Source of the DNA: a virus
Direction: 5' to 3' (one strand)
DNA: 51,541 nucleotides
Virus record (IMG/VR): IMGVR_UViG_3300032313_000852
Location: 1-51,541 of that record
Position numbers and translations under genes: made by a program. This document shows, piece by piece, positions 9,228 through 51,541 of this stretch. Position 1 is the stretch's first letter. The number at the start of each line of letters is the position of its first letter. The notes under the pieces were generated by a model. The model searched no databases. It had not been told where the DNA came from and saw nothing but the letters and a program-made list of their open reading frames with translations.

Positions 9228-9356
9228 ATGGCAAAAGCAAAAGGTGGAACGGCTTCAATTAAGAAGACTTTCGGAAAAAGAAAAAAGGGTGTTTATAAAA
9301 AGAGTTACGGTCCTAAAGCCCAAAAACCCAAAAAATACCAAGGTCAAGGTCGTTAA
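9228..9356 (+). CDS. Small very basic protein, 42 aa
   Basis: The frame runs from ATG at 9228 to TAA at 9356. The product is dominated by Lys, Arg, Gly and aromatic residues (KKTFGKRKKGVYKKSYG, ending KKYQGQGR), with almost no acidic residues. Such a composition suggests binding to nucleic acid or to an acidic surface of the capsid. The gene is monocistronic, divergent from the PcfJ-like gene, preceded by AGGA and a TATTTATA octamer, and its stop codon overlaps the stop of thyA on the other strand. Small conserved basic proteins of this type are familiar from large aquatic phages, but no function is known. Confidence 0.7.
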   Translation: MAKAKGGTASIKKTFGKRKKGVYKKSYGPKAQKPKKYQGQGR

Positions 9357-24323: not shown

Positions 24324-24332
24324 ATAAATCAT

Positions 24333-29913: not shown

Positions 29914-31251
29914 CTATTTTATTTTAGATTCTAAAGCCTCAATACGTATTAACAATTCTTTGTTTGTTTGAATTAACAAAGCAACTAATTTTTCGTATTT
30001 AACAGCCATATAACCATTGTCTCTTGTAGTTACAATTTCAGGTAAAACTGAGTTAATTTCTTGTGCTATTACCCCAATATCGTGACCTTCGTTCTCATGA
30101 ATACCTTCCATTGGAACCCAATCGAAATAATAACCATTAATTTGTTTCAATATGTCTAAAGAACCTGTAATTGATTGGATATTTTCTTTTAGTCTTTCAT
30201 CAGAACCATAGTAGGCAATAACGTCATTTGTTGCTCTAATTAAACCTGTAGTTGTTGGTGTTGATGTACCCACACCTAACGCACCTGCAACATATAGGGT
30301 TGTTCCGTTAAATGTTAAATTTGCCTCACCATTTAGGGTAACTCCACCTTCACTTGTCATTACACGGTCTGCACTTGCATTTGTAATTGTTGTTGTACCA
30401 GATGATCCTGAAGAACCGTTAGAACCTGAAGAACCGTTAGAACCTGATGTTCCTGAAGAACCGTTAGAACCTGATGTTCCTGAAGAACCACTAGAACCTG
30501 ATGTTCCTGAAGAACCTGATGAACCTGAAGAACCTGATGTTCCTGAAGAACCTGAAGAACCATTAGAACCTGAAGTTCCTGAAGAACCATTAGAACCTGA
30601 AGTTCCTGATGAACCACTTGAACCTGAAGTACCTGACGTCATTGCACTGAATGAAACTCCATTCATAACCAATGTTCCTGTGGTACGTATAGACCCTGTA
30701 ACTTCTAAATCGTCTCCAAAAACAACTTTATTTCCACCTGAAGATGTTATTTTATTACCATCTTGCATTTGTAATGTTCCCTTAACGGTAATTAAACCAG
30801 TCGTTGGGTCTAACGCAATATCACCACCACCTGAGGATTTTAATTCAATATCACCATCAGCAGTTTGTAATGTAATATTGTCAGTACCAAGTTCATTAAA
30901 TTTAATTGATTGGCCAGAATCTGTTGAGAAAATTACCTCAGTAGAGTTTGAAGAAATTACTTGGGTTCCGTCAATATATAATGAACCTGAAGAAAGATAC
31001 AAATCTCTCCATTGATAATCCAAACTACCCAAATCGTAGATATCATTAACTGAAGGGAGAATAGAACCACTTACAGTTTGATTTCCAACAAATAAGTTAC
31101 TACCAGTGGTAGCAAAACGTGCAGAACCTGTTGTGCTTAAGGTTAGTGCATTAGATGTTGTACCACTAATTGTTGCGTTTATTGTACCATTTACGGTTAA
31201 ATCTCCCGTAATTGTTGCCGAACCAGTTATAATCGGATCAAATATTTTCAT
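29914..31251 (-). CDS. Tail fibre with collagen-like repeat and S74 chaperone domain
   Basis: The 445-residue protein has three parts. Residues 1-200 are beta-rich repeats with short Gly-Thr segments (SATITGDLTVNGTIN, NDIYDLGSLDYQWRDLYL), typical of trimeric fibres. Residues 207-285 are about 26 Gly-X-Y triplets made only of Ser, Thr and Asn (GSS, GTS, GSN), a collagen-like stretch without proline. Residues 349-445 are a peptidase S74 intramolecular chaperone, with SDERLKENI carrying the Ser350/Lys355 dyad and a C-terminal coiled coil. S74 domains trimerise fibres and then cut themselves off. The next gene upstream encodes an O-heptosyltransferase-like protein, for which this Ser/Thr-rich stretch is an attractive target. 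Confidence 0.9.
   Translation of the reverse strand: MKIFDPIITGSATITGDLTVNGTINATISGTTSNALTLSTTGSARFATTGSNLFVGNQTVSGSILPSVNDIYDLGSLDYQWRDLYLSSGSLYIDGTQVISSNSTEVIFSTDSGQSIKFNELGTDNITLQTADGDIELKSSGGGDIALDPTTGLITVKGTLQMQDGNKITSSGGNKVVFGDDLEVTGSIRTTGTLVMNGVSFSAMTSGTSGSSGSSGTSGSNGSSGTSGSNGSSGSSGTSGSSGSSGSSGTSGSSGSSGTSGSNGSSGTSGSNGSSGSNGSSGSSGTTTITNASADRVMTSEGGVTLNGEANLTFNGTTLYVAGALGVGTSTPTTTGLIRATNDVIAYYGSDERLKENIQSITGSLDILKQINGYYFDWVPMEGIHENEGHDIGVIAQEINSVLPEIVTTRDNGYMAVKYEKLVALLIQTNKELLIRIEALESKIK
30397..30633 (-). repeat. Gly-X-Y coding repeat in tail fibre
   Basis: A 9-base periodic region encodes the GSS/GTS/GSN triplets (residues 207-285). Copies are near-identical at the DNA level, so length changes by slippage or recombination are likely between related phages. 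Confidence 0.9.
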
Positions 31252-37564: not shown

Positions 37565-38367
37565 ATTAAATAAGTTTTTATGTCATTACTTTCTTTATGA
37601 ATATAATTTGGATAATTTTTTTGAATAAAATTGTGTAAATTCAATGCATAATTTTTAAGATGTATTGGGCCGCAATGTTTATTATCCACTCCTTTATCTA
37701 ATACATTTAAGAAAAAATCACCATCATATCTAAATTCATCTTTGTATGATGAACGAATTAAACTTCCATTCCAGATAAAATTACACTTTTTGGATTCTAA
37801 AAATAATTTTATCAATTGATGATTTTTATACCAATTTATAAAATCTTCATTATCATTTTGTAATTCTATTTTCAATTTTTGAGTATTCATACCTTCAATA
37901 GTTTCTTCGGTAAATCCCCAGGCCGATGTTGGCATGTATGGTTCAACTCCACCATCTTTAGTATATATTTCTCTTCTAACAATTTCTGGATAAAATATTA
38001 AAACTAAATCAGGTTTAATTAAATCATAATAACTAAATAGACATCTCACTACAAAATCTCCGCTTCTTCCACCCGTACCAAAGTTTATATTAACACCATT
38101 TAGAATTAGTTTTGCAAATTGTGCTGGCCACGTTTCATCGTTATTGACTCCAACTCCTTCGGTATGTGAACAACCCAATGACATCACTTTAAATCCATCT
38201 TTTTTTATACTATCACCTCTAAATCCTAATTCATTATAGGTGTATGTACATAAACCTGTATTATCTGATCCCGATGTTGTATATGTTCTGCCGACCCTTT
38301 CTTTTAGAGAATATTTATAAGATGATATTTCAAATCCTTCTGGATTCCAATATTTTATTACTTTCAT
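37561..38367 (-). CDS. SGNH/GDSL-like hydrolase
   Basis: The catalytic Ser is in MSLGCSHTEGVGV (block I, GCSH), Gly of block II is in FGTGGRSGD, and the C-terminal HCGPIHLKNYA gives the block V His. At 268 residues it is longer than the other SGNH copies, with an N-terminal extension. SGNH enzymes add or remove O-acyl groups from carbohydrates; near the oxygenase genes it may trim or add acyl groups on a glycan. Its stop overlaps the next gene by ATGA. Confidence 0.75.
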   Translation of the reverse strand: MKVIKYWNPEGFEISSYKYSLKERVGRTYTTSGSDNTGLCTYTYNELGFRGDSIKKDGFKVMSLGCSHTEGVGVNNDETWPAQFAKLILNGVNINFGTGGRSGDFVVRCLFSYYDLIKPDLVLIFYPEIVRREIYTKDGGVEPYMPTSAWGFTEETIEGMNTQKLKIELQNDNEDFINWYKNHQLIKLFLESKKCNFIWNGSLIRSSYKDEFRYDGDFFLNVLDKGVDNKHCGPIHLKNYALNLHNFIQKNYPNYIHKESNDIKTYLI

Positions 38368-38864
38368 ATTAATTTATTTATATCAAATTTTACATGTTCA
38401 CTTTGTAAAAACCAAAGTAATGAGTATCTTTCCCCACTTAAAATAGGTGTAATTTCATGTTCAATTCTCACATCAAATAAATAAGTATTTCCCATTTCTT
38501 TATTTAACATATATTCATCTGGATTGTATAATTTAAAATCACCACCACTAAAATCATTATTTAATAAAACACCAACAGCATATACCCTATCGTCTCTAAT
38601 ATCGTTATGTTTTCCGAACCAATCACCTTTCGTAAATTTATGAAAATGTATCGTTTTATTTATTGTTCTAATTTCAATTTTTGTTTCCTTTTCCACATAA
38701 TCCTTCAATTTATCAAATAACCAAATAGTATTTTTACTATATTCTATACTCATTGATTCATATATTCTATCTTTGTAGTTCCAATTTTGTTTTTTTAATT
38801 TTGATATATCAATAATTGATTGACATTCTTGTTGATTAAATAATATTTTTTGTATTAAAAACAT
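38364..38864 (-). CDS. 2OG-Fe(II) oxygenase, P4H-like
   Basis: The 166-residue protein fits a prolyl 4-hydroxylase-type double-stranded beta helix: FHKFTKGDWFGKHNDIRDDR (HxD), VGVLLNNDFSGGDFKLYN, and IEHEITPILSGERYSLLWF with the distal His and the 2OG-binding Arg. It needs Fe(II), O2 and 2-oxoglutarate. Despite the family name there is no proline-rich target in the window, so hydroxylation of a sugar or other residue is more likely. It overlaps both neighbouring SGNH genes by a few bases. Confidence 0.88.
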   Translation of the reverse strand: MFLIQKILFNQQECQSIIDISKLKKQNWNYKDRIYESMSIEYSKNTIWLFDKLKDYVEKETKIEIRTINKTIHFHKFTKGDWFGKHNDIRDDRVYAVGVLLNNDFSGGDFKLYNPDEYMLNKEMGNTYLFDVRIEHEITPILSGERYSLLWFLQSEHVKFDINKLI

Positions 38865-39490
38865 TATAAAATTTTATTTTTGTTTTTAAATTTATTTATA
38901 AATAAATCCGATAGTTGTATATGCCCATTTTCACTAAAATGCCAATCATTTAATTTTCCGTTTGTTTCTGCAAATATAGTTTCAAATTTATTTAAAAACA
39001 TACAATCCAATCGTTGGTCAAATGGTGTCCAATGAATTATGTTTTTATCTAAATTGTTTAATAATTTAATCCAACTATTTACTTCATTACAATATCTTAT
39101 ATCATCTCTGTTTAAAAGAATCTCAATAAGAGTAGATTCGGATATTTTTGTTTTGTCAATTTCTTTAGTTGAAAATTTATCATAATTTGGTAAAATTGTT
39201 ATCCAATCGTTAGAAACTAACCTAAATCTCAACGGAGATGACCATCCAATTATTACTAAATCGTTTTTTTTAATATTTTTTACGTTATCACAAAATTTTT
39301 GTAATATAGAATAATTGTCCGATGCATTATCGGCTAGATTAATTAATTCTAAATTTAATTTTTGTGAAATGATTTCGTCAAACCCTTTTGGTGTATAACC
39401 TTTCCAATTTACATAATTATTTGTCCAATTAGATTCAAATGAAAATCCAGCAGAAAAACTATCTCCAAATATATAAAGTTTTTGTTTCAT
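38864..39490 (-). CDS. SGNH/GDSL-like hydrolase
   Basis: The N-terminus KLYIFGDSFSAGFSFE holds the GDSF block I; ADNASDNYSILQKF matches block III (Asn); and DWHFSENGH is block V with catalytic Asp and His. LIEILLNRDDIRYCNEVNSW and the surrounding residues are paralogous to the protein at 49885-50613. At 208 residues it is a compact enzyme. It is likely an esterase or acyltransferase acting on glycan. Confidence 0.85.
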   Translation of the reverse strand: MKQKLYIFGDSFSAGFSFESNWTNNYVNWKGYTPKGFDEIISQKLNLELINLADNASDNYSILQKFCDNVKNIKKNDLVIIGWSSPLRFRLVSNDWITILPNYDKFSTKEIDKTKISESTLIEILLNRDDIRYCNEVNSWIKLLNNLDKNIIHWTPFDQRLDCMFLNKFETIFAETNGKLNDWHFSENGHIQLSDLFINKFKNKNKIL

Positions 39491-39504
39491 TTAAATTAAA
39501 TAAT

Positions 39505-40092
39505 TTATATTAGATGCATTTTTTCTAATATATCTTTTTTCAATATAGTTAAAACAATTGACCACCTCTCACCATCTAAAATTTCTTTTATTTCATGTGA
39601 TGTTGTAGCATCATATGCAATCGCGTTGCCCACTTCTTTACTTAACAAAATTTCTTTATTGTTTTCATCGTAACAAATATATTCACCACCGATATAATTG
39701 TCATTTAATTGTATTCCTAAATTCCATCTTCTATTTGGAAAGTTAATGTTAAAATCCATATGTTTCATAAAAGAATCGCCTTTTGAATATTTATGCAAAG
39801 AACAACCAATTGGCGTATTATCGGGATTACGTTCAACTTTTGAAACGTTTGAAAACCAATTAAAAAGTTTTTCAAACATCCACCCCGATTCTGTATCATT
39901 TACTATATCCCAAACATTAAAAAATTTACCCAATTTTTTACCATTTTCCATTTTTGCAAATTCGTTAATTCTTCTATTAGCTAAATCTAATCTAGATTCT
40001 AATTTTCTAAATGGTAAATCGGTATATATTTTTGTATATGATAATATTTTATCACATTCTTCTTTTGTAAATATTTTTTCTTGATAAATCAT
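39505..40092 (-). CDS. 2OG-Fe(II) oxygenase, P4H-like
   Basis: The 195-residue enzyme has HKYSKGDSFMKHMDFN (HxD), LGIQLNDNYIGGEYICYD, and SHEIKEILDGERWSIVLT (distal His and Arg). The order of motifs equals that of the neighbour at 38364-38864, so it is a related paralogue. The N-terminal half has helical parts (ECDKILSYTKIYTDLP). Substrate not known. Confidence 0.87.
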   Translation of the reverse strand: MIYQEKIFTKEECDKILSYTKIYTDLPFRKLESRLDLANRRINEFAKMENGKKLGKFFNVWDIVNDTESGWMFEKLFNWFSNVSKVERNPDNTPIGCSLHKYSKGDSFMKHMDFNINFPNRRWNLGIQLNDNYIGGEYICYDENNKEILLSKEVGNAIAYDATTSHEIKEILDGERWSIVLTILKKDILEKMHLI

Positions 40093-40102
40093 ATTAATTT
40101 AA

Positions 40103-40579
40103 TTATATAATATTTTTTACTTTTTTACTAACCCATACCACCATCATCTCTCTCAGGCCTGATTTTATTTCTTTAACTTCATGATATTCTTTCTGTCCAT
40201 CGAATACCACCACATCTCCTTTTTTAAATGGAATTAAATTGTCATTAACATATAACTCCCCTCCTTCGAAACTATCATTTAACATAATCAAATACGTTTT
40301 ATTTGCTTTAATATCTAGATGTTTTTTGGCATAATAACCGGATTCATATTTAATATAGTGTAATGAATATATTATTTCATCTTCTTCTAATGTTACATAT
40401 TTTAATAATGTATCAACTAATATCTTATTAGTTAAATCACAATAAAATATTTCTTTTAAATGAATTACATTTTTAAAATCGTGATATGATTTTATTTTTT
40501 TATTTTCATTTCCAAAATTATAATTTTTTAACATTATATCAATGTCATCATAATTAATTTTATTTTTAAATATATTCAT
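40103..40579 (-). CDS. 2OG-Fe(II) oxygenase
   Basis: The 158-residue protein has IKYESGYYAKKHLDIKANKT (HxD), IMLNDSFEGGELYVNDN, and KEYHEVKEIKSGLREMMVVW (His and Arg). It is the shortest of the five clustered oxygenases and is very Lys- and Asn-rich, as the local AT content would predict. It starts with ATG at 40579, just after the sulfotransferase stop. Confidence 0.85.
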   Translation of the reverse strand: MNIFKNKINYDDIDIMLKNYNFGNENKKIKSYHDFKNVIHLKEIFYCDLTNKILVDTLLKYVTLEEDEIIYSLHYIKYESGYYAKKHLDIKANKTYLIMLNDSFEGGELYVNDNLIPFKKGDVVVFDGQKEYHEVKEIKSGLREMMVVWVSKKVKNII

Positions 40580-40585
40580 TGAGTA

Positions 40586-41143
40586 CTAAATAAGTGTTTT
40601 TGTTTTATTAATTCTATATTTGTTACCAATTGGAAATCCTATATTTTTAACTTCTTCTATATTAAGATAATTAACAATTTTTTTAAATCCATTATTATAA
40701 TATAATTCTTCGTAAGAAATTGTAAAAAAATCTTTATTAACATATTTTTCTTTAAATTCAGATTTCAATATCTTAAAATATTCTGTTTTTTCTTTGGTAA
40801 TTGAATTTTCTGATGTTTTATAAACATATGGTAGATGCCAGTTATCCGTATTTACCGCATTTAAAAATGATTCCAATTGTTCTTGTGTATTTTCTCTATA
40901 TAGTACAATAATTTTATTGGATACATTTAACAATGAATTCCAATTTAAAGTAGGATAATATATTTCTTTAATACAAAGATGTTTAGTTTTATATTTATAA
41001 TCTTTTGGGTCAATATTATTTTGAAACCATTTACTATTAGGATTTTCTGGTTCAAATAGTGTGGTAAAGTTTTTATTAAAGTAAAACCAATTAGTAAGAT
41101 TTGTTGAACCACTTCTCGGTTCTGCTAAAATTGTGATAATCAT
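40586..41143 (-). CDS. Sulfotransferase-like protein A
   Basis: The 185-residue protein begins MIITILAEPRSGSTNLTNWF, where EPRSGST is the 5'-phosphosulfate-binding loop of PAPS-dependent sulfotransferases. The 3'-phosphate-binding part is probably IIVLYRENTQEQLESFLNAV, with the typical Arg and a helix following. It transfers sulfate from PAPS to a hydroxyl or amine of a glycan or protein. It has no signal or membrane anchor. An APS kinase at 45584-46018 may help supply PAPS. Confidence 0.8.
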   Translation of the reverse strand: MIITILAEPRSGSTNLTNWFYFNKNFTTLFEPENPNSKWFQNNIDPKDYKYKTKHLCIKEIYYPTLNWNSLLNVSNKIIVLYRENTQEQLESFLNAVNTDNWHLPYVYKTSENSITKEKTEYFKILKSEFKEKYVNKDFFTISYEELYYNNGFKKIVNYLNIEEVKNIGFPIGNKYRINKTKTLI

Positions 41144-41161
41144 ATTAATAATATTTTTATA

Positions 41162-41749
41162 TTAAAGTATTGTTTTTTTTTCCTTTAAAATCGGAAAATC
41201 AAACAATACATTTCCTGCAATTACAATTCTATCGATAGTAGAATTAATTGAAGTATCAGGTCTATGATATACATCCGCAGGAAAAATAACAAGTTCATTT
41301 TCTTCTGGTAAAAACATCCTTTGTACATTATCTTCTTTATCCATAAAAAATAATTTACCATCGTTCCCAGTTAAATTATTTGGCATTTGTACATAATAAG
41401 TGAATGTGCAATTGCTTTCTATTGATTTTTTTACATGTGGAGCAAACATTGTGTGGTTATGATAATGAGATTGTGTATCCTCATCTCTAGAAATAAAAAT
41501 CCAAGAATATAAACAATAATCAACTTCTTCAACTTTTTTATCTTTTTTAAATAATTCTATACATCTCTTAACACCATAATTTAAAATAAAATCAATTTCT
41601 TTACATGTTAATACTATGTTAGTTTGAATACCTGGTGTCAGATGTGATGGTTCATAATTAAATAATGATACGTTTTGATATATTTTTTTTATCAAAATTT
41701 CTTTTTCATATGGATATTTTATTTTTTCTCTATATATTTTATCAATCAT
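41162..41749 (-). CDS. 2OG-Fe(II) oxygenase, PF13759-like
   Basis: The 195-residue protein differs from its P4H-like neighbours. It has TQSHYHNHTMFAPH (His-x-His-x-His in place of HxD), CTFTYYVQMPNNLTGNDGKLFF, and IFPADVYHRPDTSINSTIDR with distal His and Arg, as in the putative 2OG-Fe(II) oxygenase family PF13759. It starts with an ATG overlapping the next gene by four bases. Substrate unknown. Confidence 0.8.
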   Translation of the reverse strand: MIDKIYREKIKYPYEKEILIKKIYQNVSLFNYEPSHLTPGIQTNIVLTCKEIDFILNYGVKRCIELFKKDKKVEEVDYCLYSWIFISRDEDTQSHYHNHTMFAPHVKKSIESNCTFTYYVQMPNNLTGNDGKLFFMDKEDNVQRMFLPEENELVIFPADVYHRPDTSINSTIDRIVIAGNVLFDFPILKEKKTIL

Positions 41750-42360
41750 AGTAAACTAATTATATTTTTTGTTTTAAGATTTGTTTCATAAATCCACCCA
41801 CTTATAGAATATCTTTTATAATTTTTATCAATAATTTCATCTACACAATGTGAATCTTTTATATTTTCAACATCAAAAATATTTAAACTATTAAATTTGG
41901 GTAATAATTTGTATGTAATATTATTTTTATCATCTATGAAGTTTAAGCAACCACCTTTTTTTTCATCTGCATCTTTTGTTAAATTGTAAACAAAAGCATA
42001 TTTTCTACCCAAAGATGCATCGTTATGTGGAGATAAAAAATGGCCATATGTATATTTTGAGACAAATACACTCTGTGCTTTAAAAACCTTATCTTCTAAC
42101 AATTTACTAATTTCTAATTCCAAATTTAATAGAAAAAATAAGTTTTGTATAAATTCTTTGTTTTCAATACTACTATACCAATATGAAAATTCACCTTCTT
42201 TAAATTTTGATTTTTCATATTCATAAGATTTTTTATGTTTTGAATTTGTAATCCAATCAGTTTGAGAATCGATTATATCATATACATTATTTGCAATACC
42301 ATCAGATAAAAAATTTTCTATTTGTATTGGTTTTTTTTTTAATTCTTCAATATACCCCAT
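41746..42360 (-). CDS. 2OG-Fe(II) oxygenase, SM-20/P4H-like
   Basis: The 204-residue enzyme has YGHFLSPHNDASLGRKYAFV (HxD), YNLTKDADEKKGGCLNF, and DSHCVDEIIDKNYKRYSISGW (His and Arg). Its pattern, with the YNLTKD strand, is the SM-20/Ogg1 branch of oxygenases. It overlaps the previous gene by ATGA, so the two are cotranslated and may act on successive positions. Confidence 0.87.
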   Translation of the reverse strand: MGYIEELKKKPIQIENFLSDGIANNVYDIIDSQTDWITNSKHKKSYEYEKSKFKEGEFSYWYSSIENKEFIQNLFFLLNLELEISKLLEDKVFKAQSVFVSKYTYGHFLSPHNDASLGRKYAFVYNLTKDADEKKGGCLNFIDDKNNITYKLLPKFNSLNIFDVENIKDSHCVDEIIDKNYKRYSISGWIYETNLKTKNIISLL

Positions 42361-43453: not shown

Positions 43454-44962
43454 TTATAATGGTAAACAAACCAATCCAGATGCAAAACAAGGTCCTCCAC
43501 CATTATATGTACAATATTCATACATTTTGTCACATCCACCGGAACCTATACCCTGAGTATTACAAGGTTGACATTGATAGTTATGTTCAATTGCCACAAA
43601 CATACCATCATTTGTTTTGGTTAGGAATAAATGTTCATCTTGAACAGTTATTGTCCATCCGTCAAACCCATTAACACTATTCGTTATATTTGTAACGGTT
43701 TTTTCTACCACACTTACTGTTTCTAAATTATCTGTCTGAACTAAAAGGATTTTATCACCAATTTGTAACATATCTAATGTAGTATCTTCCAAATTTAAAG
43801 CAGTCCATTTAACAATATCTCCTCTTTTTATTAGATATTGTGATATTGATGTATCTTCCCACGTTGTATTATCATCAAATGTAATAGTTGTCATTGGTGA
43901 CAAAACATTTGATTTTTGTTTACCTAAAACTACATTTGTTGAAAATGTTGAGTTTGATAAAAATTCAGTAAAATTAACACTATATCCTCTAAGTTCATCT
44001 GATTCTGTTAAATTTGGTTGATTTTCGTATAACTTTATTGTTTTTACCACATCTCCAACTTGTAATTCTAATCCTGTCTTATATGACCCATCTGCCATCA
44101 TAACCAAATCATCATCCATTAATTTTGGTTTATTAATAGTTTGTGTACCTGAAATATATGATTTTCTGAAATTAGGATTTACTTCAAACGTTTCAGTATT
44201 GTAAGTAACATCTTCAAATAATTGAACATTGCCATGTTTAGTATATGCTCCAATTGCAATTGATTCTAATGTAGGTGGATATAATAGATTATATGAACGA
44301 ACTACTGTTGCAGTATTATTTTCAATTTTTTCAGCGTTAAAATAATACTCCATTAAAAAATATTCATTAGTTACATTTTGTAATACTACATCTAATTGTT
44401 CTTGAGTTACAACTTTAAAAAATTTAGGATATTCGTTTCTATCATATATTGGATATTTTGCTTTTAAAACAAAATTTGGGTGAACTCCATTGTCGTTAAA
44501 TGTTGTAATGTTTGACACTAATTGGTTTGACTCATCCATATAAGCAAATTGACAACCAAATTCGGTAGATTGTATTAACTTTAAAAAGTTTACCTTATCT
44601 TTACAATAAGTTTCATCTACAATTGCGGTTACATCATATGCACTTCTTATGATTAAATGTGTATCAGAATCTTCAACATAAGGTATGGTTATATTACCAT
44701 TCGTCTCTAAAAATTCATACTCAATATTTGTATTACTACACATTGGTTCCAATCTATCATGAAACTTAAGAATTCCACCAATATATGTCACCTTTGTAAA
44801 ATTATTGGAACTAATGAAATTAGCCAATTCAGTCAAATTGAATAAACTATCATATTGTTCTTCCGTTAATCTATTTATACCTGCGTTTGTATTTATTTCA
44901 ATTGGTTTTAAATTACCTAATGAATTATATACTAAATCGGTTCCTAATAATACAGTTCTCAT
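43454..44962 (-). CDS. Protein with degenerate Hint (intein-like) domain, 502 aa
   Basis: The N-terminal 270 residues start MRTVLLGTDLVYNSLGNLKP and include IEINTN, a piece found in ATP-grasp-like phage proteins; the rest is unassigned. From about residue 280, DDDLVMMADGSYKTGLELQVGD fits the first block of a Hint/intein fold, and DEHLFLTKTNDGMFVAIEHN (ending at 461) fits the last two blocks. The position expected to be the nucleophilic Cys holds Lys280, so splicing or cleavage should be lost, while the terminal His-Asn is kept. A 41-residue Cys-rich tail follows (six Cys, such as YQCQPCNTQ and GGCDKMYEYC). It has a promoter octamer and is likely virion related. Confidence 0.65.
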   Translation of the reverse strand: MRTVLLGTDLVYNSLGNLKPIEINTNAGINRLTEEQYDSLFNLTELANFISSNNFTKVTYIGGILKFHDRLEPMCSNTNIEYEFLETNGNITIPYVEDSDTHLIIRSAYDVTAIVDETYCKDKVNFLKLIQSTEFGCQFAYMDESNQLVSNITTFNDNGVHPNFVLKAKYPIYDRNEYPKFFKVVTQEQLDVVLQNVTNEYFLMEYYFNAEKIENNTATVVRSYNLLYPPTLESIAIGAYTKHGNVQLFEDVTYNTETFEVNPNFRKSYISGTQTINKPKLMDDDLVMMADGSYKTGLELQVGDVVKTIKLYENQPNLTESDELRGYSVNFTEFLSNSTFSTNVVLGKQKSNVLSPMTTITFDDNTTWEDTSISQYLIKRGDIVKWTALNLEDTTLDMLQIGDKILLVQTDNLETVSVVEKTVTNITNSVNGFDGWTITVQDEHLFLTKTNDGMFVAIEHNYQCQPCNTQGIGSGGCDKMYEYCTYNGGGPCFASGLVCLPL

Positions 44963-44988: not shown

Positions 44989-45204
44989 TTATTTTTTATC
45001 TTTTAGTCCAAATTTTATCCATTTATACCAAATTCTTTCATGAAGATAATATTGAATGGGTTTATATATCAGTTCTACCACCCCGAAAGCCGTACCAACC
45101 TTGATTGATCCACTTACCCACCATATTATTAAAAACCCAATAAGAGTACTTACAATACGATATGAGATGGTTTTAGCAATATGTCGTTTACGTTCTACTA
45201 TCAT
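44989..45204 (-). CDS. DUF2061 family membrane protein, 71 aa
   Basis: The sequence VERKRHIAKTISYRIVSTLI, GFLIIWWVSG and VELIYKPIQYYLHERIWYKW follow the DUF2061 consensus, a predicted two-helix membrane protein with the conserved Lys and Tyr-Tyr-x-His-Glu-Arg segment. In bacteria DUF2061 genes often occur next to sulfate-activation genes; here it lies two genes from a CysC-like kinase. Its role is unknown. It overlaps the nucleotidyltransferase gene by ATGA. Confidence 0.85.
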   Translation of the reverse strand: MIVERKRHIAKTISYRIVSTLIGFLIIWWVSGSIKVGTAFGVVELIYKPIQYYLHERIWYKWIKFGLKDKK

Positions 45205-45587
45205 TTGTCATTCATATCTGGATATTCTATAATATCTCCGTTTGAATCAATATACCCGTTTCTGATACTTGTACCACTAATTTTAGCAACTTCTTCAGGT
45301 GGTTCGTGGTAAATAACATCGTACCCAACCCCTCTACCGTAATTGATACTCTCAATATCAGGGATGATGGATATGTTAATTCTATGTGAATTTTCTTTAA
45401 AGAAAGTCTCCTCAGATAAATCCATCATTACCTGTTGTGCGGTTTTTGGGTTATTTTCATCTGTGGGTACGTTTCTAATTGCAACCCATACGTCTTTTCC
45501 TTTCTCTAATTGTTGGTTAATAAGCCATTCGTGACCCTTATGCCAATTTTGCCAACGCCCCACATACATTGCGTACTTTTTACTCAT
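45201..45587 (-). CDS. Nucleotidyltransferase (HxGH family, cytidylyl/NMN-adenylyltransferase-like)
   Basis: The protein of 128 residues has YVGRWQNWHKGHEWLINQQL (the HxGH nucleotide-binding motif as HKGH) and KISGTSIRNGYI (the second ATP-binding motif, ISxTxxR). The family couples a nucleotide to a small phosphate compound: NMN adenylyltransferase and pantetheine-phosphate adenylyltransferase are relatives. Given its place between DUF2061 and CysC-like genes, a role in nucleotide or sugar activation is likely, but substrate is undetermined. Confidence 0.82.
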   Translation of the reverse strand: MSKKYAMYVGRWQNWHKGHEWLINQQLEKGKDVWVAIRNVPTDENNPKTAQQVMMDLSEETFFKENSHRINISIIPDIESINYGRGVGYDVIYHEPPEEVAKISGTSIRNGYIDSNGDIIEYPDMNDK

Positions 45588-46018
45588 ATTTTTAATTTTA
45601 TTGTTAATTCAATAAACGAATCAACCTCTTTTCTGTTACTTGTGTCAATATCTACAAAATTATCCGTAGGTTTTTCATAATTAGACACGTGAAACCCTTC
45701 TCTACCTCGTTCGTCCGTGGTGTGAACATAAACCTCAATTACCTCATTAGTTTGTTTAAATTGGTCTCTTTGGTCCTTGTATGGTGAAACTAAGGACACA
45801 ATCACGTTAAAACCCTTTTCACTCATAAATCTTGCAATATCCTGAGCTCTTTCGATGTTTTTCCTTCTTCCAACCTCAGAATAGTCTTTGTTTTGGAAGA
45901 TGTCACGTAAGTCGTCACCATCAATGTGAATTACATTGATGTTCTCAAAATAATTAACCAAATGTTTGGCCAATGTTGTTTTTCCTGCACCAGGTTGTCC
46001 TGTTAACCAATATATCAT
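45584..46018 (-). CDS. cysC: Adenylylsulfate (APS) kinase, CysC-like
   Basis: The kinase phosphorylates APS to PAPS, the universal sulfate donor. Walker A is GQPGAGKTTLA, followed by IHIDGDDLRDIFQNKDYS and GRRKNIERAQDIARFM, which are CysC hallmarks. At 144 residues it is shorter than the roughly 200 residues of cellular enzymes; the C-terminal part has REGFHVSNYEKPTDNFVDID in place of the usual FTGIDDPYEPP region. It overlaps the nucleotidyltransferase by ATGA. With two sulfotransferases about 3 kb away, it may supply PAPS for phage-directed sulfation. APS itself would come from host sulfate adenylyltransferase. Confidence 0.87.
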   Translation of the reverse strand: MIYWLTGQPGAGKTTLAKHLVNYFENINVIHIDGDDLRDIFQNKDYSEVGRRKNIERAQDIARFMSEKGFNVIVSLVSPYKDQRDQFKQTNEVIEVYVHTTDERGREGFHVSNYEKPTDNFVDIDTSNRKEVDSFIELTIKLKI

Positions 46019-46206: not shown

Positions 46207-46875
46207 TTATTTTAATTTATTTTTTATGTAATTAGCAAATAAACTGTGAGTTTTATCATCCCAATGATGATCATGTTTACGTCCACTTTTTCCGTTAGTT
46301 TCGACATATTCATCATGTGACGTTCCTAAATATCCCAAATTTTTCTCTATTTTTGATTTATCCTCAATAATATCCAATTTTTCATCCATCTCATCCCATG
46401 AAAAAATTAACACTTTACATGGGGTTATTTTATATAGTGAACTGATAATATCTAAATAATTAAGACTTGCCGCTTTTGAAGAATTAATCAACTGCATTGT
46501 CTGTATTATTTTATTATAATCGTCTTTTTCTGACTCAAACACATCAATTAAATCTACGCTTGGTTGATATTTGTGTATACCAACAAACCTATTTGTTGAT
46601 GTGAGATTTCCAGTTAAGTTATCGTCCCAAAAATTAGTTTCGTTAAATGGTAATCTAGTTCTTAAAAAAGTTGGTAACATTATTATTAGAGAATCGTCAT
46701 CATTTAAGTTTGGAATACTAACAATCCACTTATCAAGTATTGTTTGTACATCTCGACTAGGTTGTCCGTCAACAAATACTGTTTTAAAATTATCTTTTAA
46801 AATATCAACCCACGAATCGTATATTGGTCTACCTTTACCAACAAAACTATCTCCTATAATTAAAATTTTAGACAT
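46207..46875 (-). CDS. SGNH/GDSL-like hydrolase
   Basis: The start MSKILIIGDSFVGKGRP holds block I (GDSF), and the end HDHHWDDKTHSLFANYI gives the block V Asp and His. The middle part (LNDDDSLIIMLPTFLRTRLP) fits a strand and loop of the fold. At 222 residues it is similar in size to the copies at 38864 and 49265. An acyl ester hydrolase or transferase on glycan is the likely role. It starts one base from the carbamoyltransferase stop. Confidence 0.83.
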   Translation of the reverse strand: MSKILIIGDSFVGKGRPIYDSWVDILKDNFKTVFVDGQPSRDVQTILDKWIVSIPNLNDDDSLIIMLPTFLRTRLPFNETNFWDDNLTGNLTSTNRFVGIHKYQPSVDLIDVFESEKDDYNKIIQTMQLINSSKAASLNYLDIISSLYKITPCKVLIFSWDEMDEKLDIIEDKSKIEKNLGYLGTSHDEYVETNGKSGRKHDHHWDDKTHSLFANYIKNKLK

Positions 46876-48540
46876 TTACTTATATATTATATAATTACCA
46901 ATAACCAACAAATCCATGTCGGTATCGTAAAAAGTATCCACCGCGTCTTTGGGTGTTAATACCATTGTTTTATCTTTAACATTAAACGACGTGTTTAATA
47001 ATATTGGGTATCCTGATACTTTTTCAAATGCTTTTAGTAAATCATATATCGCAGTATTTTTATATACCGTCTGTACCCTCGCTGAACCATCCACATGAGT
47101 AACAGCCTTTAATATGTCTCTATATTCGGGTCTAACCTTAACCACCTGATTCATGTAAGGGATATCATCTGTCATTTCAAAAAATTCGTCTTGTCTATCT
47201 TTTGTCACCATTGGTGCGAATGGTCTGAACCCCTCTCTTTTTTTAATAACTTTATTAATCCTATCTTTCATTCCCTCAATAGTTGGGTCTGCTAATATTG
47301 ATCTGTTACCAAGAGCCCTAGAACCAAATTCAATGTGACCATAAAACCAACCCACAACCTTACCTTCTTTTAATTTTTTTGCAACATAATCTCTAAGACT
47401 GGCGTCTGATGCAAACTTATAATTTTTGGTTTTCTTAATCGCTTCTTTAATTTCATCAAGAAAATACATCGGTCCTAAAAATGGATTCTTGGTTATTTTA
47501 CTTCTAACTTTCTTTTCTTTAACCAAATAATGAATAACAGCACCTATAGCAGAACCAGCGTCAGATGGTGCTGGTGGTATCCATAAATGATTGAATGATG
47601 AGTCGTTTACTATTTTACCATTCGCAGTTCCGTTATAAGCACACCCACCACTTAAACATAAATTCTGACTTTCACTTATAATTGAAATTGATTTCAAAAT
47701 TTTAAACAATATCTCTTCATAAACTTTTTGTACGGACGCCGCCAAATCTTTATGTACTGGTTCTAAACTATCGTCAGGTATACGTTGGTCAATACCAAGT
47801 AATGTGGAAAGATTATCATTAAACATAGTTTTGTCAGATGTATTCCAACAAAAAACGTCCATATTACATTCTAATTTACTATTTTTATATGTGATTAACT
47901 TTCTAACCTTATCAATATAAATCTCAGAATTTCCATATGGTGCCAATCCCATCATTTTATATTCACCTTCGTTTGGCCTAAACCCTAAAAATGAGGTCAT
48001 TGCAGAATAAAATAAACCTAATGAATGTGGATATTTTGCCATACTACCATATTCAATACCCTGATAGTCACCAAAACCAACAGATAACGTATCAATCTCA
48101 CCAACACCATCTATTGACAAACACGTTGCCTTTTCAAATGGTGATGTGTAAAATGAATAATATTGGTGAGCTTCATGGTGTGTAGAATAAAAAACATTAG
48201 GTGATAACTCTTTAAGTCTTTTATCTAAAGTCTTCATATTTCTTTTAATCTTTAAAAAAGATTTAATGGAATAGAAAAGATTTTTAAATAGTTGTGGTCT
48301 AATATTGTCAACAACCCTTTTATATTTTAATTTAGGGTCTTCGTAATAACAAACCGCCTGTAAATTTTTACTATTTATTTTATATTTTTTATATATGTAA
48401 TCTAATGCCACATCGGGAAATGAACTATCGTGTTTAATTCCTGTAAACTTTTCTTCTTCGCAAGCAAATATTAATTGGTTATCTCTGAATAAACATACAG
48501 AGGAGTCATGATAAAATGCCGATATTCCGATTATATACAT
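46876..48540 (-). CDS. Carbamoyltransferase, NodU/CmcH family
   Basis: The 554-residue protein has the O-carbamoyltransferase pattern: GISAFYHDSSVCLFRDNQL, FACEEEKFTGIKHD, STHHEAHQYYSFY (the His-rich nucleotide site), LSIDGVGEIDTLSVG, LCLSGGCAYNGTANGKI, and the C-terminal YrdC-like half with GHIEFGSRALGNRSILAD. The enzyme uses carbamoyl phosphate and ATP to put a carbamoyl group on a hydroxyl of sugars or antibiotics. In this locus a glycan hydroxyl is the natural candidate. Full length and complete. Confidence 0.94.
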   Translation of the reverse strand: MYIIGISAFYHDSSVCLFRDNQLIFACEEEKFTGIKHDSSFPDVALDYIYKKYKINSKNLQAVCYYEDPKLKYKRVVDNIRPQLFKNLFYSIKSFLKIKRNMKTLDKRLKELSPNVFYSTHHEAHQYYSFYTSPFEKATCLSIDGVGEIDTLSVGFGDYQGIEYGSMAKYPHSLGLFYSAMTSFLGFRPNEGEYKMMGLAPYGNSEIYIDKVRKLITYKNSKLECNMDVFCWNTSDKTMFNDNLSTLLGIDQRIPDDSLEPVHKDLAASVQKVYEEILFKILKSISIISESQNLCLSGGCAYNGTANGKIVNDSSFNHLWIPPAPSDAGSAIGAVIHYLVKEKKVRSKITKNPFLGPMYFLDEIKEAIKKTKNYKFASDASLRDYVAKKLKEGKVVGWFYGHIEFGSRALGNRSILADPTIEGMKDRINKVIKKREGFRPFAPMVTKDRQDEFFEMTDDIPYMNQVVKVRPEYRDILKAVTHVDGSARVQTVYKNTAIYDLLKAFEKVSGYPILLNTSFNVKDKTMVLTPKDAVDTFYDTDMDLLVIGNYIIYK

Positions 48541-48543
48541 TGT

Positions 48544-49290
48544 CTATTTTTTAAAAAGAACCTTTTTTAATTGTTTTGGTTCAATGTGTCTTATTGGGTT
48601 ATGAACACCTAAGGGGTTTTTTGAAAATACGTCTTCCATACTAAATTTTGACGCGGTTTCAACATCAGCAACCCCTATTCCTTTCATATGTTTCATAAAA
48701 TAAATATCTTCCCAAATTTGTTCTGTAACTGGATTATTTTCACAAATTTCAATCATTTTACTGACGGTTCTTAATGATAATCCACCATTTCCAACCCATT
48801 GATTTTCTTTTGGTTTTCTCCACGGAGCACCTACGTAATCATATGGTAAGAATTCATCAACACCGCTTCTTAATAATAAAGAATCTGTCTGAAAGATTAA
48901 AGCCTTATCCCCCTTTACATTTTTCCAAAAATTTGACGTTTCCATGTACTCACTATGTTCAATATTTGAAAGGTTTCTAACTCCCATATTAAAATATTCA
49001 ACTCCAACCCAATCTTTGGTTATATTTTTCACATAGTCTTCGTTGTTCGTACCATGAAAAATTTGTAATCCCCACTTAATTGGTGATTCATTCTCATTTA
49101 AATAATACATTGTTGATTTCATCACCAATGCTAAATTAAGATGTTGTCTAGGTTCAATTATAACCGCATAGTGTTTTGAGTCGTTTTGAATTTTTGGTTT
49201 ATATCCATTAAATTTAATATCAACATGAGTTAAGTAGTCCCCCCATATTTTGATATTATCTTCGTTATATAATTTTATTGATTTGTTCAT
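48544..49290 (-). CDS. DUF5672 family glycosyltransferase-like protein
   Basis: The ATG at 49290 is preferred over the TTG at 49305. The 248-residue protein carries the DUF5672 signature: ALIFQTDSLLLRSGVDEFLP, DYVGAPWRKPKENQWVGNGG and LSLRTVSKMIEICENN. Members are found in large viruses, phages and bacteria with surface-glycan clusters, and are predicted GT-A transferases. It overlaps the SGNH gene by 26 bases and comes directly before the carbamoyltransferase. Reaction unproven. Confidence 0.82.
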   Translation of the reverse strand: MNKSIKLYNEDNIKIWGDYLTHVDIKFNGYKPKIQNDSKHYAVIIEPRQHLNLALVMKSTMYYLNENESPIKWGLQIFHGTNNEDYVKNITKDWVGVEYFNMGVRNLSNIEHSEYMETSNFWKNVKGDKALIFQTDSLLLRSGVDEFLPYDYVGAPWRKPKENQWVGNGGLSLRTVSKMIEICENNPVTEQIWEDIYFMKHMKGIGVADVETASKFSMEDVFSKNPLGVHNPIRHIEPKQLKKVLFKK

Positions 49291-49888
49291 ATATGTAATC
49301 TCCAATTATTTTATATCCATTTAAATTGGGGTGATAATCTCCCTCGTAGAAATTTTCCTCGTCATTCCATACACTTCTACTACCATACTCCCAAACCGAT
49401 TCATCATTTTTAATCTCATATTCTCTTAAAACATCTGAAACACATCCATCAGGGTTAATGAAATATGAGGGTAGTTTTTTGGTGTCAACATCCTCTTCCC
49501 TAAATGATGGGTAAAATGAATTAAAATAAAAATGTTTATAATCTTTTAAAATTTCTTCCATTAATAAAAATACCTCAACAACGTTGTGACTATCTTTAGA
49601 TTTATACCTATATGGATATGAGAACATAACAATAATGATGTCGTCTTTTGATAATAATCCAAAATTTTTAATTCCGTCAATCTCATTTAAAATGTATTCG
49701 TTTCCATAACCACAAACACCAAGATTAACATATGGACAATCCAGTTTTTGTGCAACCCATCTTGGCCACGAATTCATATCTCTTAATTTTTGTGTAAATG
49801 CGTCGGGAAATGGTTCCTCTTTGTATTTTATATCAGTTTCAATACCATGACCTGCGGTCCAACTGTCCCCAAATGTAATTAACCTCAT
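49265..49888 (-). CDS. SGNH/GDSL-like hydrolase
   Basis: Block I is RLITFGDSWTAGHG, block II NLGVCGYGNEYIL, and block V DYHPNLNGYKIIGDYI with catalytic Asp and His. At 207 residues it is complete. It overlaps the preceding SGNH gene (49885-50613) by ATGA, so two SGNH enzymes are made as a pair, possibly working as acetyltransferase and esterase on the same sugar. Confidence 0.87.
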   Translation of the reverse strand: MRLITFGDSWTAGHGIETDIKYKEEPFPDAFTQKLRDMNSWPRWVAQKLDCPYVNLGVCGYGNEYILNEIDGIKNFGLLSKDDIIIVMFSYPYRYKSKDSHNVVEVFLLMEEILKDYKHFYFNSFYPSFREEDVDTKKLPSYFINPDGCVSDVLREYEIKNDESVWEYGSRSVWNDEENFYEGDYHPNLNGYKIIGDYIYEQINKII

Positions 49889-50613
49889 TCTATATATTGT
49901 TTAATGTGGTTATAAAAATAATCAGCTTGTTTAATATGACCATGTTCTCCTAAATGTAAATCATTTACAGCATTTTCGGTTTCTTGTTTTATTGTTAAAT
50001 AAGAACCTAACGAATATGAAATATAATTAATCAACGAACACGTTTTAAAATGTTTTTCTTTGGGGGGTAGAATATAATTTTTATCATTAATAAATTTAGA
50101 ATCCATATCAAATATTAAATTATCACTGTTCCAATGAAATACTTCTACATTTTTTAATCTACAATAATCATTAATGAACTTAATCCAATTTTGAACTTCC
50201 TCAGCCCATAATGGATGGGATCTATTTACTAAAATCTCATCAATAGTTGTTTTTGAAAGCCCAACATCGACATTATAAGATTGTTTTGGTAACATTTCAT
50301 TCATTCGGTGTTCTTTTTCATTTACAACACTGAATCTAAGTAATTGTGTCCATCCAAATATTAAAATGTCCCCTTCACTAATATTATCTATCACATTAAT
50401 AAATTGTTTTAATATATTATAATTAGACGCCCCTCCAATACCGCAATTTTTAATATCGGAATTTAATTTTTTAGCCAAAATAGTTGACCACATATTTGGT
50501 AATGTACCTCCTCTAAATTTTTTATATTCGTCATACGTTGATGGTAAATGTTCGTACCCCACTGGATACCATTCAGCGGTAAAACTGCAACCAAAAGTCC
50601 ATAATGTCCTCAT
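49885..50613 (-). CDS. SGNH/GDSL-like hydrolase
   Basis: Block I is LWTFGCSFTAEWYPVG (GCSF), NCGIGGASNYNILKQF is block II/III, and DLHLGEHGHIKQADYFYN is block V. TIDEILVNRSHPLWAEEVQN aligns with the protein at 38864-39490, making these paralogues. The start overlaps the upstream gene stop, and the 242-residue product has an insertion at residues 120-180 relative to the smaller copies. Confidence 0.86.
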   Translation of the reverse strand: MRTLWTFGCSFTAEWYPVGYEHLPSTYDEYKKFRGGTLPNMWSTILAKKLNSDIKNCGIGGASNYNILKQFINVIDNISEGDILIFGWTQLLRFSVVNEKEHRMNEMLPKQSYNVDVGLSKTTIDEILVNRSHPLWAEEVQNWIKFINDYCRLKNVEVFHWNSDNLIFDMDSKFINDKNYILPPKEKHFKTCSLINYISYSLGSYLTIKQETENAVNDLHLGEHGHIKQADYFYNHIKQYIE

Positions 50614-51541
50614 TAAATTAAGTTTTTAAAAAATTCATAATCATCATTAACTAAATCTAAATTTTTAATGATTTTTCTTTTATTATTCTCAAATCTTTCT
50701 TGATTATTTTTATAAAATTCTATGATTTGGTCTTTATTTTGAAATATCCTCTCAATTTCTTTAACAAATGAATATAACCTGTCTCTATCATTTTTAATGC
50801 CGTCATAACTATGGTCAATAATATCATCAAAAAAATCTAAATCGTACCTATCTCTCATTTTTTTAACATGTCCTTCAGATGCTAATATTAGTGGTATTTG
50901 ATAATAATAAAAAGGTCTAAATGATTTTTCCGATATATGAATTACATTATGTTTTTTAAAAAATTTAGATTCAGTAACAATATTAACATATGAATTTTCA
51001 TAATTTTTTGGGTATTCGGGAATTGTCATTATTTTTGGTAACCCATCCATATTAGGTTCTTTATGTTTAGTAAACCAATTTTTTTCTTCTTCAAAATCAC
51101 TAACTTTCATTTCTAATTTAGAAAATATATTAATTTCAGGTTTGATATCATTTATATCATCTTCATTTAATAAATCTTTAAAATATGATTCATCTATTAC
51201 AACATTATATGTTGGCACAAACGACCAATTCATCTGGTTAAGTAATTCATTTTTCATTAATAAGCATAATAAACTTGCTCTTTGAGATCTAGGTGATTTA
51301 TTAAATAACATAGCAAATTTACCCGTTTTTTTAGGAACAAAATTACATCCCCCTACATAATCTAAAACTTTTGTTGATGAGTGTGATATGAATTGTAAGG
51401 AATGAACATTAATTCCGCTATTATATTTTAATTTATATTCATCTAGTTTTGCATTATTGTTTATAACGTAAAATTGACTTTCATTTAATTTATGATAAAG
51501 TATGAATTCTCGTAACATTCTAAATCCATTTTCAGTATCTG
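50613..51541 (-). CDS. Putative glycosyltransferase-like protein (start possibly outside window)
   Basis: The frame is open to the window end; an ATG at 51518 gives 301 residues, but the eight codons before it (ending ENGFR) are also open, so the true start may be outside. ISEKSFRPFYYYQIPLILAS followed by YDLDFFDDIIDHSYDG has the look of the C-terminal donor half of fucosyltransferase-like GT-B enzymes of viruses (Glu-Lys-x-Phe, Pro-Leu/Ile-Ile). GKFAMLFNKSPRSQRASLL forms an N-terminal strand and turn. It shares its stop with the next SGNH gene (ATG overlap). Reaction not identified. Confidence 0.6.
   Translation of the reverse strand, partial: DTENGFRMLREFILYHKLNESQFYVINNNAKLDEYKLKYNSGINVHSLQFISHSSTKVLDYVGGCNFVPKKTGKFAMLFNKSPRSQRASLLCLLMKNELLNQMNWSFVPTYNVVIDESYFKDLLNEDDINDIKPEINIFSKLEMKVSDFEEEKNWFTKHKEPNMDGLPKIMTIPEYPKNYENSYVNIVTESKFFKKHNVIHISEKSFRPFYYYQIPLILASEGHVKKMRDRYDLDFFDDIIDHSYDGIKNDRDRLYSFVKEIERIFQNKDQIIEFYKNNQERFENNKRKIIKNLDLVNDDYEFFKNLI

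What the first reader, a model, noticed from the sequence alone, without database searches (positions are those of the whole stretch)
46876..50613. Carbamoyltransferase linked to DUF5672 and three SGNH enzymes
A full-length O-carbamoyltransferase is flanked by SGNH hydrolase-like genes and a DUF5672 transferase. Carbamoylation is known in Nod factors and antibiotics; on a phage it adds another sugar modification and may hide the virion or its host from recognition.
Basis: partly seen in the sequence, partly recalled or inferred. Interest (0 to 1): 0.55.

Follow-up and report, generated by a model that had tools for sequence, protein, structure and literature searches.

The report
Phage sugar-decorating carbamoyltransferase gene cluster
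An uncultured virus of bacteria carries an apparently intact enzyme that adds a carbamoyl group to a hydroxyl, packed tightly with sugar-adding and esterase-like genes; such enzymes are already known in phages, so this is mostly a new example, with an unreported-looking link to a small nucleotide-activating gene cassette.

Summary
ORF 46876-48540 (-) is a full-length class III O-carbamoyltransferase (CTase): both Pfam domains match end to end, and the catalytic His, the essential Tyr and all four iron ligands known from GdmN are present (by alignment; no CTase model was built). DUF5672 models as a GT-A glycosyltransferase (VIA Z 13.6). Two SGNH genes lie inside the coordinates, a third just outside (46207-46875), a fourth at 38864-39490. 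All lie on one strand; the five junctions from 51539 to 46207 are nearly gapless.

Relatives show two separable modules: [GT301-SGNH242-SGNH207-DUF5672], and the CTase followed downstream by an APS-kinase-like kinase, an HxGH nucleotidyltransferase and DUF2061. None of 1090 ORFs in 80 related loci looks polytopic (15 of 181 in chromosomal control loci). Best explanation: cytosolic O-carbamoylation of a phage-made glycan, probably on virion proteins; the acceptor is inferred, not shown.

DNA carbamoylation (5hmC type) is disfavoured: every thymidylate synthase read keeps Asn. CTases in phages are known (145 of 50,697 records match). What looks new: DUF5672's likely fold, the kinase/nucleotidyltransferase/DUF2061 linkage, and one published 'PyrBI' label that its genome does not support. 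Interest is modest.

The parts
46876..48540 (-). class III O-carbamoyltransferase (Kae1-like + YrdC-like halves), 554 aa
   Evidence: PF02543 and PF16861 full length; GdmN E 9e-79, NovN, TobZ; active-site residues mapped; dN/dS 0.08-0.09
48544..49305 (-). DUF5672 protein, predicted GT-A glycosyltransferase, 253 aa (TTG start, overlaps SGNH207 by 41 bp)
   Evidence: PF18922 E 4e-29; AlphaFold2 mean pLDDT 88; Foldseek top E 1.6e-6 to BoGT6a; VIA Z 13.6 LARGE1, 13.4 BoGT6a
49265..49888 (-). SGNH207, SGNH/GDSL-like protein with GDS and D184-x-H186, 207 aa
   Evidence: GDSL_2 E 3.5e-6, below cut-off; G7 D8 S9 and H186 invariant in 15 of 15 rows, D184 nearly invariant
49885..50613 (-). SGNH242, SGNH-like with GCS and D218-x-H220, 242 aa
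   Evidence: G8, S10, D218, H220 invariant in 20 of 20 rows; homologous to SGNH208
46207..46875 (-).
   Evidence: G8 D9 S10, D202, H204 invariant in 8 of 8 rows; model hits
50613..51539 (-). GT301: C-terminal part of a protein cut by the window end; no Pfam match; glycosyltransferase-like only by my reading
   Evidence: ORF; no Pfam family for it or for a 424-aa relative
45584..46018 (-). APS-kinase-like P-loop kinase, 144 aa
   Evidence: PF01583 E 2e-19; PDB APS kinases, best E 1.9e-17
45201..45587 (-). HxGH nucleotidyltransferase, nearest to NMN adenylyltransferases, 128 aa
   Evidence: NF002243 E 8e-6, below cut-off; PDB NMNAT E 2e-6 by profile
44989..45204 (-). DUF2061 small membrane protein, 71 aa
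   Evidence: PF09834 E 2e-15; found in 39 of 94 related loci at 45-100% identity
38864..39490 (-). SGNH208, fourth SGNH-like gene, 208 aa
   Evidence: PF00657 E 6e-4, below cut-off; aligned with SGNH242

Best explanation
The CTase makes carbamoyl-AMP from carbamoyl phosphate and ATP and passes the carbamoyl group to a hydroxyl, His11 acting as base at an iron site (class III mechanism; inferred from conserved residues). The acceptor is most likely a sugar of a glycan that the phage builds in the host cytosol with its own glycosyltransferases, DUF5672 (GT-A type) being one of the last. The cytosolic SGNH proteins most likely trim or transfer ester groups (acyl or carbamoyl) on the same glycan. 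The glycan is more likely attached to virion proteins, for instance fibres, than to a lipid-linked host polymer. Shown here: family, intact key residues, gene order, recurrence, absence of polytopic membrane proteins. Inferred: sugar acceptor, order of steps, SGNH role, virion as final carrier, any benefit.
For: Complete family match and key residues. No GdmN-type C-terminal dimerisation domain (554 aa, ending at GdmN position about 566); class III CTases without it are said to act on polar acceptors such as tobramycin (PMC9633730, passages). Neighbours in the window: at least eight GT-family hits, two NAD-dependent epimerases, DegT aminotransferase, methyltransferases, FkbM, GNAT, 2OG oxygenases. 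DUF5672 models as GT-A. DUF5672 lies within 300 bp of SGNH207 in 35 of 44 loci and within 10 kb of the CTase in 26 of 44. No ORF of 150 aa or more with four or more hydrophobic stretches: 0 of 46 in the window, 0 of 1090 in 80 related loci, against 15 of 181 in 18 Bacteroidota CTase loci. The three SGNH genes begin with the catalytic motif within about ten residues, leaving no room for a signal peptide. Isolated Pelagibacter phage HTVC008M has its CTase beside a glycosyltransferase, methyltransferase and UDP-glucose dehydrogenase.
Against: No acceptor, product or virion glycan has been observed. The link of the CTase to DUF5672/SGNH207 is loose: DUF5672 lies upstream within 7 kb in only 5 of 30 dereplicated loci, directly adjacent in 3; SGNH222 follows the CTase in one other contig only (L009/L084) and in 0 of 33 dereplicated loci. 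In S-SSM7 and P-SSM2 the matched CTase sits among replication and structural genes, not sugar genes. Lack of polytopic proteins does not exclude use of the host's own flippases and ligases. The hydrophobicity scan is crude. The SGNH spacing D-x-H differs from the usual D-x-x-H. The window itself gave no terminase hit, so virion genes are not at hand to test.
Confidence: 0.5

Rival explanations
1. The cluster remodels the host's surface polysaccharide (LPS or capsule) during infection, for example to exclude other phages; the CTase decorates that polymer.
For: Cyanophage papers place sugar genes of P-SSM2, S-SM2 and S-SSM7 under LPS biosynthesis, with function unknown (PMC3037559, passages). 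Bacterial surface chemistry is a usual target of such genes (general knowledge).
Against: No flippase-, polymerase- or MBOAT-like protein in the window or 80 related loci; SGNH proteins have no signal peptide by reading.
Confidence: 0.22
2. The CTase carbamoylates hydroxymethylated cytosine in DNA or dCTP pools, as the 5hmC carbamoyltransferase of Yang et al. 2021 does, protecting phage DNA.
For: A homologous phage-type CTase does this in vitro (PMC8670742, passages). The window holds a thymidylate synthase and two C5-cytosine methylase matches, and a distant clade has TS 5-7 kb from the CTase in five loci. TobZ W408, G421, R423, singled out in that paper, correspond by spacing to W398, G411, R413, but the passages do not say which state marks DNA-modifying enzymes: inconclusive.
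Against: In that paper the TS partner mostly has Asp177, and CTases of unmodified contigs lie beside glycosyltransferases. Here every TS read keeps Asn: the window, four CTase-locus copies and the six records with a match among 16. Contigs are fragments, so absence of a dCMP hydroxymethylase is not proven.
Confidence: 0.06
3. The CTase decorates a nucleotide-activated small molecule: it, the APS-kinase-like kinase, the HxGH nucleotidyltransferase and DUF2061 form one pathway that makes an unusual donor later used by the GTs or sulfotransferase-like proteins.
For: CTase loci have the kinase downstream in 19 of 33, nucleotidyltransferase in 18 of 33, DUF2061 in 17 of 33 dereplicated loci. Searched from the other side, 23 of 29 nucleotidyltransferase loci with 7 kb on both sides hold a CTase within 10 kb, and 80 of 80 hold DUF2061. 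L077 keeps the neighbourhood in swapped order. DUF2061 is fused or adjacent to an APS kinase in 2 of 15 Bacteroidota genomes that have it.
Against: The 80 nucleotidyltransferase loci are the best of at least 569 and overlap the CTase contigs, so the two counts are not independent. The cassette is far commoner than the CTase. In the window 188 bp and one SGNH gene separate CTase and kinase. No substrate is known for either enzyme.
Confidence: 0.15
4. The CTase serves pyrimidine or arginine synthesis (PyrB/ArgF-like), as some cyanophage papers write.
For: So described for phages MS29 and S-SZBM1 (PMC10436341 and PMC9146016, passages).
Against: The window protein matches the Kae1/YrdC-type CTases and no PyrB/ArgF family. 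The S-MS29 record has no PyrB/ArgF N-terminal domain (0 of 1; control 14 of 14 genomes) and one Carbam_trans_C match.
Confidence: 0.01

Closest known systems
GdmN, NovN and TobZ (class III O-carbamoyltransferases)
   Same: Same two domains, about 29% alike to GdmN over 540 residues by eye of the alignment, E 9e-79; catalytic His, Tyr and four iron ligands kept.
   Different: Lacks GdmN's C-terminal dimerisation domain; lies on a phage among sugar genes, not in an antibiotic cluster.
'Nol-like' carbamoyltransferases of cyanophages and Pelagibacter phages (phrog_1601; P-SSM2 nol, S-SSM7, HTVC008M, Mosig)
   Same: Same family on phages; HTVC008M also has sugar genes beside it.
   Different: Only 28-33% identical; no match to SGNH207, SGNH242 or SGNH222 in phage records; no nucleotidyltransferase match in cyanophages (5 records, none cyanophage).
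5hmC carbamoyltransferase of Yang et al. 2021 (PMC8670742)
   Same: Phage-associated CTase of the same Pfam pair.
   Different: That one goes with an Asp177 thymidylate synthase homologue; here all TS read keep Asn.
Bacteroidota chromosomal carbamoyltransferases
   Same: Closest cellular relatives found, 34-46% identical in the rows listed, in 163 of 395 genomes.
   Different: Their genes are followed by a small SxtJ-like membrane protein in 14 of 18 loci; no such gene in the 94 phage loci or the window. They fall on the other side of a 99% branch (midpoint root).
sxt clusters (SxtI carbamoyltransferase with a GDSL-lipase-like SxtL)
   Same: Published precedent for a GDSL protein, an APS kinase and a sulfotransferase near an O-carbamoyltransferase; SxtL was proposed as a decarbamoylase (PMC2679770, passages).
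   Different: Different pathway and organism; phage loci lack SxtJ/SxtK-like genes. No claim that the phage makes such a compound.

Membership tests
class III O-carbamoyltransferase | Kae1-like PF02543 and YrdC-like PF16861 halves, full length | tested here: met
   206 and 217 bits, cut-offs 24 and 27
class III O-carbamoyltransferase | catalytic His27, Tyr82 and iron ligands H133, H137, D156, D333 of GdmN | tested here: met
   H11, Y66, H121, H125, D144, D327, invariant in 41 of 41 rows; mapped by counting the alignment
class III O-carbamoyltransferase | carbamoyl-phosphate pocket residues of the YrdC-like half | not tested
   many invariant residues there (R408, K433, K434, R435, R439, N516, S518), but none was assigned to the pocket from a source, and no CTase model was made
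GdmN-type homodimeric subclade | C-terminal dimerisation domain after the YrdC-like domain | tested here: not met
   the protein ends at GdmN position about 566-568, domain is D574-L674
NodU (NF041651) | equivalog score cut-off 1000 | tested here: not met
   174.7 bits
5hmC DNA carbamoyltransferase system | thymidylate synthase homologue with Asp at E. coli position 177 | tested here: not met
   Asn in the window, four locus copies and six records; contigs are incomplete
SxtI/SxtJ/SxtK-type operon | small SxtJ-like and SxtK-like proteins after the CTase | tested here: not met
   blastp of the Bacteroidota clusters (names recalled) against 2575 ORFs of 94 loci and the window: no hit
DUF5672 (PF18922) | Pfam gathering score | tested here: met
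   101.7 bits, cut-off 24.4
GT-A glycosyltransferase fold | structural match of a confident model | tested here: met
   pLDDT 88; Foldseek E 1.6e-6; Z 13.6 over 198 residues, rmsd 3.7; a shared fold does not show activity
SGNH/GDSL hydrolase superfamily | nucleophile Ser in an N-terminal G-D-S block | tested here: met
   GDS in SGNH207 and SGNH222; GCS in SGNH242, where relatives have GCS or GDS
SGNH/GDSL hydrolase superfamily | C-terminal D-x-x-H dyad (recalled motif) | tested here: inconclusive
   all three have D-x-H, one residue shorter; Asp and His conserved
APS kinase equivalog (TIGR00455) | score cut-off 138.7 | tested here: not met
   71.7 bits; Pfam APS_kinase cut-off is met
nicotinamide-nucleotide adenylyltransferase (NF002243) | score cut-off 127 | tested here: not met
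   25.6 bits; profile match to PDB NMNATs at E 2e-6

The most novel reading that the evidence does not exclude
These freshwater-type phages run a complete cytosolic glycan-decoration line that both carbamoylates and, through the APS-kinase-like/HxGH/DUF2061 cassette, makes a second, possibly new nucleotide-activated donor (sulfate-like or other) for the sulfotransferase-like proteins; the doubly decorated glycan ends on hydroxylated, collagen-like tail fibres, a virion coat chemistry not described so far.
Probability: 0.12. Interest if true: 0.65.

Novelty: new member of a known kind. Interest (0 to 1): 0.38.

Why it matters
It shows that phage O-carbamoyltransferases reach well beyond marine cyanophages and form their own clade apart from the isolates compared. 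It gives DUF5672, an uncharacterised family, a testable glycosyltransferase hypothesis. It ties the CTase to a conserved kinase/nucleotidyltransferase/DUF2061 cassette whose product is unknown and can be assayed. It also shows that one published 'PyrBI' annotation in a cyanophage is not supported by its genome.

Tried and rejected
PyrB/ArgF-type function: rejected. 5hmC DNA carbamoylation: disfavoured by Asn in every TS read; the three TobZ positions of the MetaGPA paper gave no decision. NodU equivalog: not met. SxtJ/SxtK partners: not found in phage loci. Cellular homologues of the nucleotidyltransferase in Bacteroidota: 0 of 395, but nothing rang, so that empty answer shows nothing. Genome-collection scan with the CTase profile returned one locus, a Saprospiraceae MAG contig with chromosomal genes, CTase cut by the contig end. 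PDB sequence search for SGNH207: no match up to E 1. Terminase (phrog_2): 3 of 17 records, not in the window. Papers: DUF5672 is held in one paper, an unrelated effector study (listing only); carbamoyltransferase with SGNH and phage gave one unrelated paper (listing); 'Nol-like' with phage gave none; four-term searches gave none or unrelated listings. Novelty statements rest on these searches of an open-access library only. Host of the phage: not determined.

The tree is a quick one: long branches of the six isolates make their places unsure, and the root is a drawing midpoint, so no direction of gene transfer is claimed. Rows dropped: tree rows under 500 aa; for, 80 loci were reduced to 36 at 95% CTase identity; for, 20 of 64 DUF5672 loci without a half-length hit were left out. 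An earlier count said DUF2061 is in 40 of 94 loci at 77-100%; the recount is 39 of 94 at 45-100%.
Full report
What is there. The minus strand from 51539 down to 46207 carries six adjoining genes: the end of a protein cut by the window (GT301), SGNH242, SGNH207, DUF5672, the CTase and SGNH222, with gaps of -1, -4, -41, 3 and 0 bp; 188 bp further come the kinase and nucleotidyltransferase (overlap 4 bp) and then a DUF2061 gene at 44989-45204. The window is a 51,541-base virus record, 29.7% G+C, without tRNA genes.

The carbamoyltransferase. Both Pfam halves match end to end and phrog_1601 at E 5e-120. The best solved relatives are GdmN (E 9e-79), NovN and TobZ. In GdmN, H27 is the general base, Y82 is essential, and H133, H137, D156 and D333 hold the iron (PMC9633730, sections 8 and 10 read, passages otherwise). 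Counting along the alignment, these fall on H11, Y66, H121, H125, D144 and D327, all invariant in 41 of 41 rows. The protein stops before GdmN's dimerisation domain; the same paper says that class III enzymes without it usually modify polar acceptors. dN/dS against two relatives is 0.08-0.09, with dS near 1.9. No structural model of the CTase was made, and the carbamoyl-phosphate pocket was not mapped.

The neighbours. DUF5672 was modelled from 14 sequences (pLDDT 88). The 50 Foldseek rows shown are almost entirely glycosyltransferases of GT-A type (as I recall the classes), led by BoGT6a; VIA-align gives Z 13.6 to LARGE1 and 13.4 to BoGT6a. The SGNH proteins have GDS (SGNH207, SGNH222) or GCS (SGNH242) and a conserved C-terminal Asp-x-His. 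Their spacing is one residue shorter than the usual D-x-x-H, so catalysis is likely but not certain. Their motifs begin at residues 7 to 8, so they look cytosolic.

The wider window. There are many sugar genes: GT families 1, 2 and 9, an Anp1 match, epimerases, DegT aminotransferase, FkbM and other methyltransferases, a GNAT, a KAS III, PhyH and, between 38364 and 42360, five 2OG-Fe(II) oxygenase matches (four over their cut-off, one just below) and a sulfotransferase-like gene, plus a fibre-like protein with collagen repeats and an S74 chaperone.

Relatives. In IMG/VR 94 of 96 candidate stretches encode a relative; the 80 best run from 43 to 77% identity. Among phage records 145 of 50,697 match, all under 60% identity, mostly cyanophages. 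In Bacteroidota, 163 of 395 genomes match. In the tree the 56 viral rows lie on one side of a 99% branch, apart from 28 Bacteroidota rows and six isolates. Three of 17 records gave a terminase.

Two modules. After reduction to 36 distinct CTases, the kinase lies downstream within 7 kb in 19 of 33 loci, the nucleotidyltransferase in 18, DUF2061 in 17; upstream, DUF5672 and SGNH207 in 5 of 30, SGNH242 in 4, GT301 in 18. From the other side, DUF5672 is within 300 bp of SGNH207 in 35 of 44 loci and within 10 kb of the CTase in 26 of 44; the nucleotidyltransferase has DUF2061 within 10 kb in 80 of 80 and the CTase in 46 of 80, or 23 of 29 where 7 kb are known on both sides. These 80 are the best of at least 569 and share contigs with the CTase set, so the counts are not independent.

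Where the product goes. Of 46 window ORFs of 150 aa or more and 1090 in 80 related loci, none has four or more hydrophobic 19-mers, against 15 of 181 in 18 Bacteroidota CTase loci; the window has three small ORFs with one stretch each among 70. That argues for a soluble, cytosolic pathway and mildly for virion proteins over a lipid-linked host polymer. It does not exclude use of host export genes.

DNA modification was the most serious rival, because a phage-type CTase carbamoylates 5hmC in vitro (PMC8670742, passages). That system goes with a thymidylate synthase homologue mostly bearing Asp177, while CTases of unmodified contigs lay beside glycosyltransferases. Here the window's enzyme, four copies near related CTases and the six records with a match among 16 all read LPFNIASY, with Asn.

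The downstream cassette is the most unexpected part. The kinase is nearest to APS kinases (best PDB E 1.9e-17) but fails the APS kinase equivalog cut-off; the nucleotidyltransferase is nearest to NMN adenylyltransferases and fails that cut-off too. DUF2061 is fused in frame with an APS-kinase domain in one Bacteroidota genome and adjacent in another, of 15 that have it. The product could be a PAPS-like donor for the weakly matching sulfotransferase-like genes, or something else.

Comparison with what is known. Phage 'Nol-like' CTases have been annotated for years; 16 cyanophage genomes included some (PMC3037559, passages), and HTVC008M shows one beside sugar genes. A GDSL protein beside an O-carbamoyltransferase, proposed as decarbamoylase, is in print for sxt clusters (PMC2679770, passages). 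One paper labels a carbamoyltransferase of phage MS29 PyrBI (PMC10436341, passages); the S-MS29 record has no PyrB/ArgF N-terminal domain but one Carbam_trans_C match at 172018-172509, inside the ORF found. MS29 and S-MS29 are equal in length; that the paper means this ORF is inferred.

Verdict. A real, probably active O-carbamoyltransferase in a phage glycan cluster: a new member of a known kind, with two points worth following, DUF5672 as a GT-A enzyme and the linked kinase/nucleotidyltransferase/DUF2061 cassette.

Noticed in passing
44989-45204: DUF2061 gene is identical in DNA to the one in L084 over 71 codons, while the adjoining nucleotidyltransferase differs at about half of its synonymous sites: looks like recent gene-scale recombination.
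   Followed up: partly
43454-44962: 502-aa protein with no clear family match; by eye it resembles a Hint-like domain with a cysteine-rich tail. Relatives lie downstream of the CTase in 18 of 33 dereplicated loci.
   Followed up: no
38364-42360: Five 2OG-Fe(II) oxygenase matches in a row with a sulfotransferase-like gene, 7 kb from a fibre-like protein with collagen repeats at 29914-31251; hydroxylation of collagen-like repeats would be testable.
   Followed up: no
9353-10480: Thymidylate synthase, 375 aa, with an insertion of about 45 residues against solved enzymes; keeps the dUMP-type Asn.
   Followed up: partly
22744-24911: KAS III-like, SDR and GNAT genes inside the plus-strand sugar cluster, suggesting an acylated sugar.
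   Followed up: no
L086:3923-6004 and L091:3770-6004: Tandem SGNH242 paralogues, three in a row, so this family expands in these phages.
   Followed up: no
L158 (OQ504980.1:167018-178604): Cyanophage S-MS29 CTase lies among 2OG oxygenases, a phytanoyl-CoA dioxygenase and near a tail fibre gene, echoing the window's gene set.
   Followed up: partly
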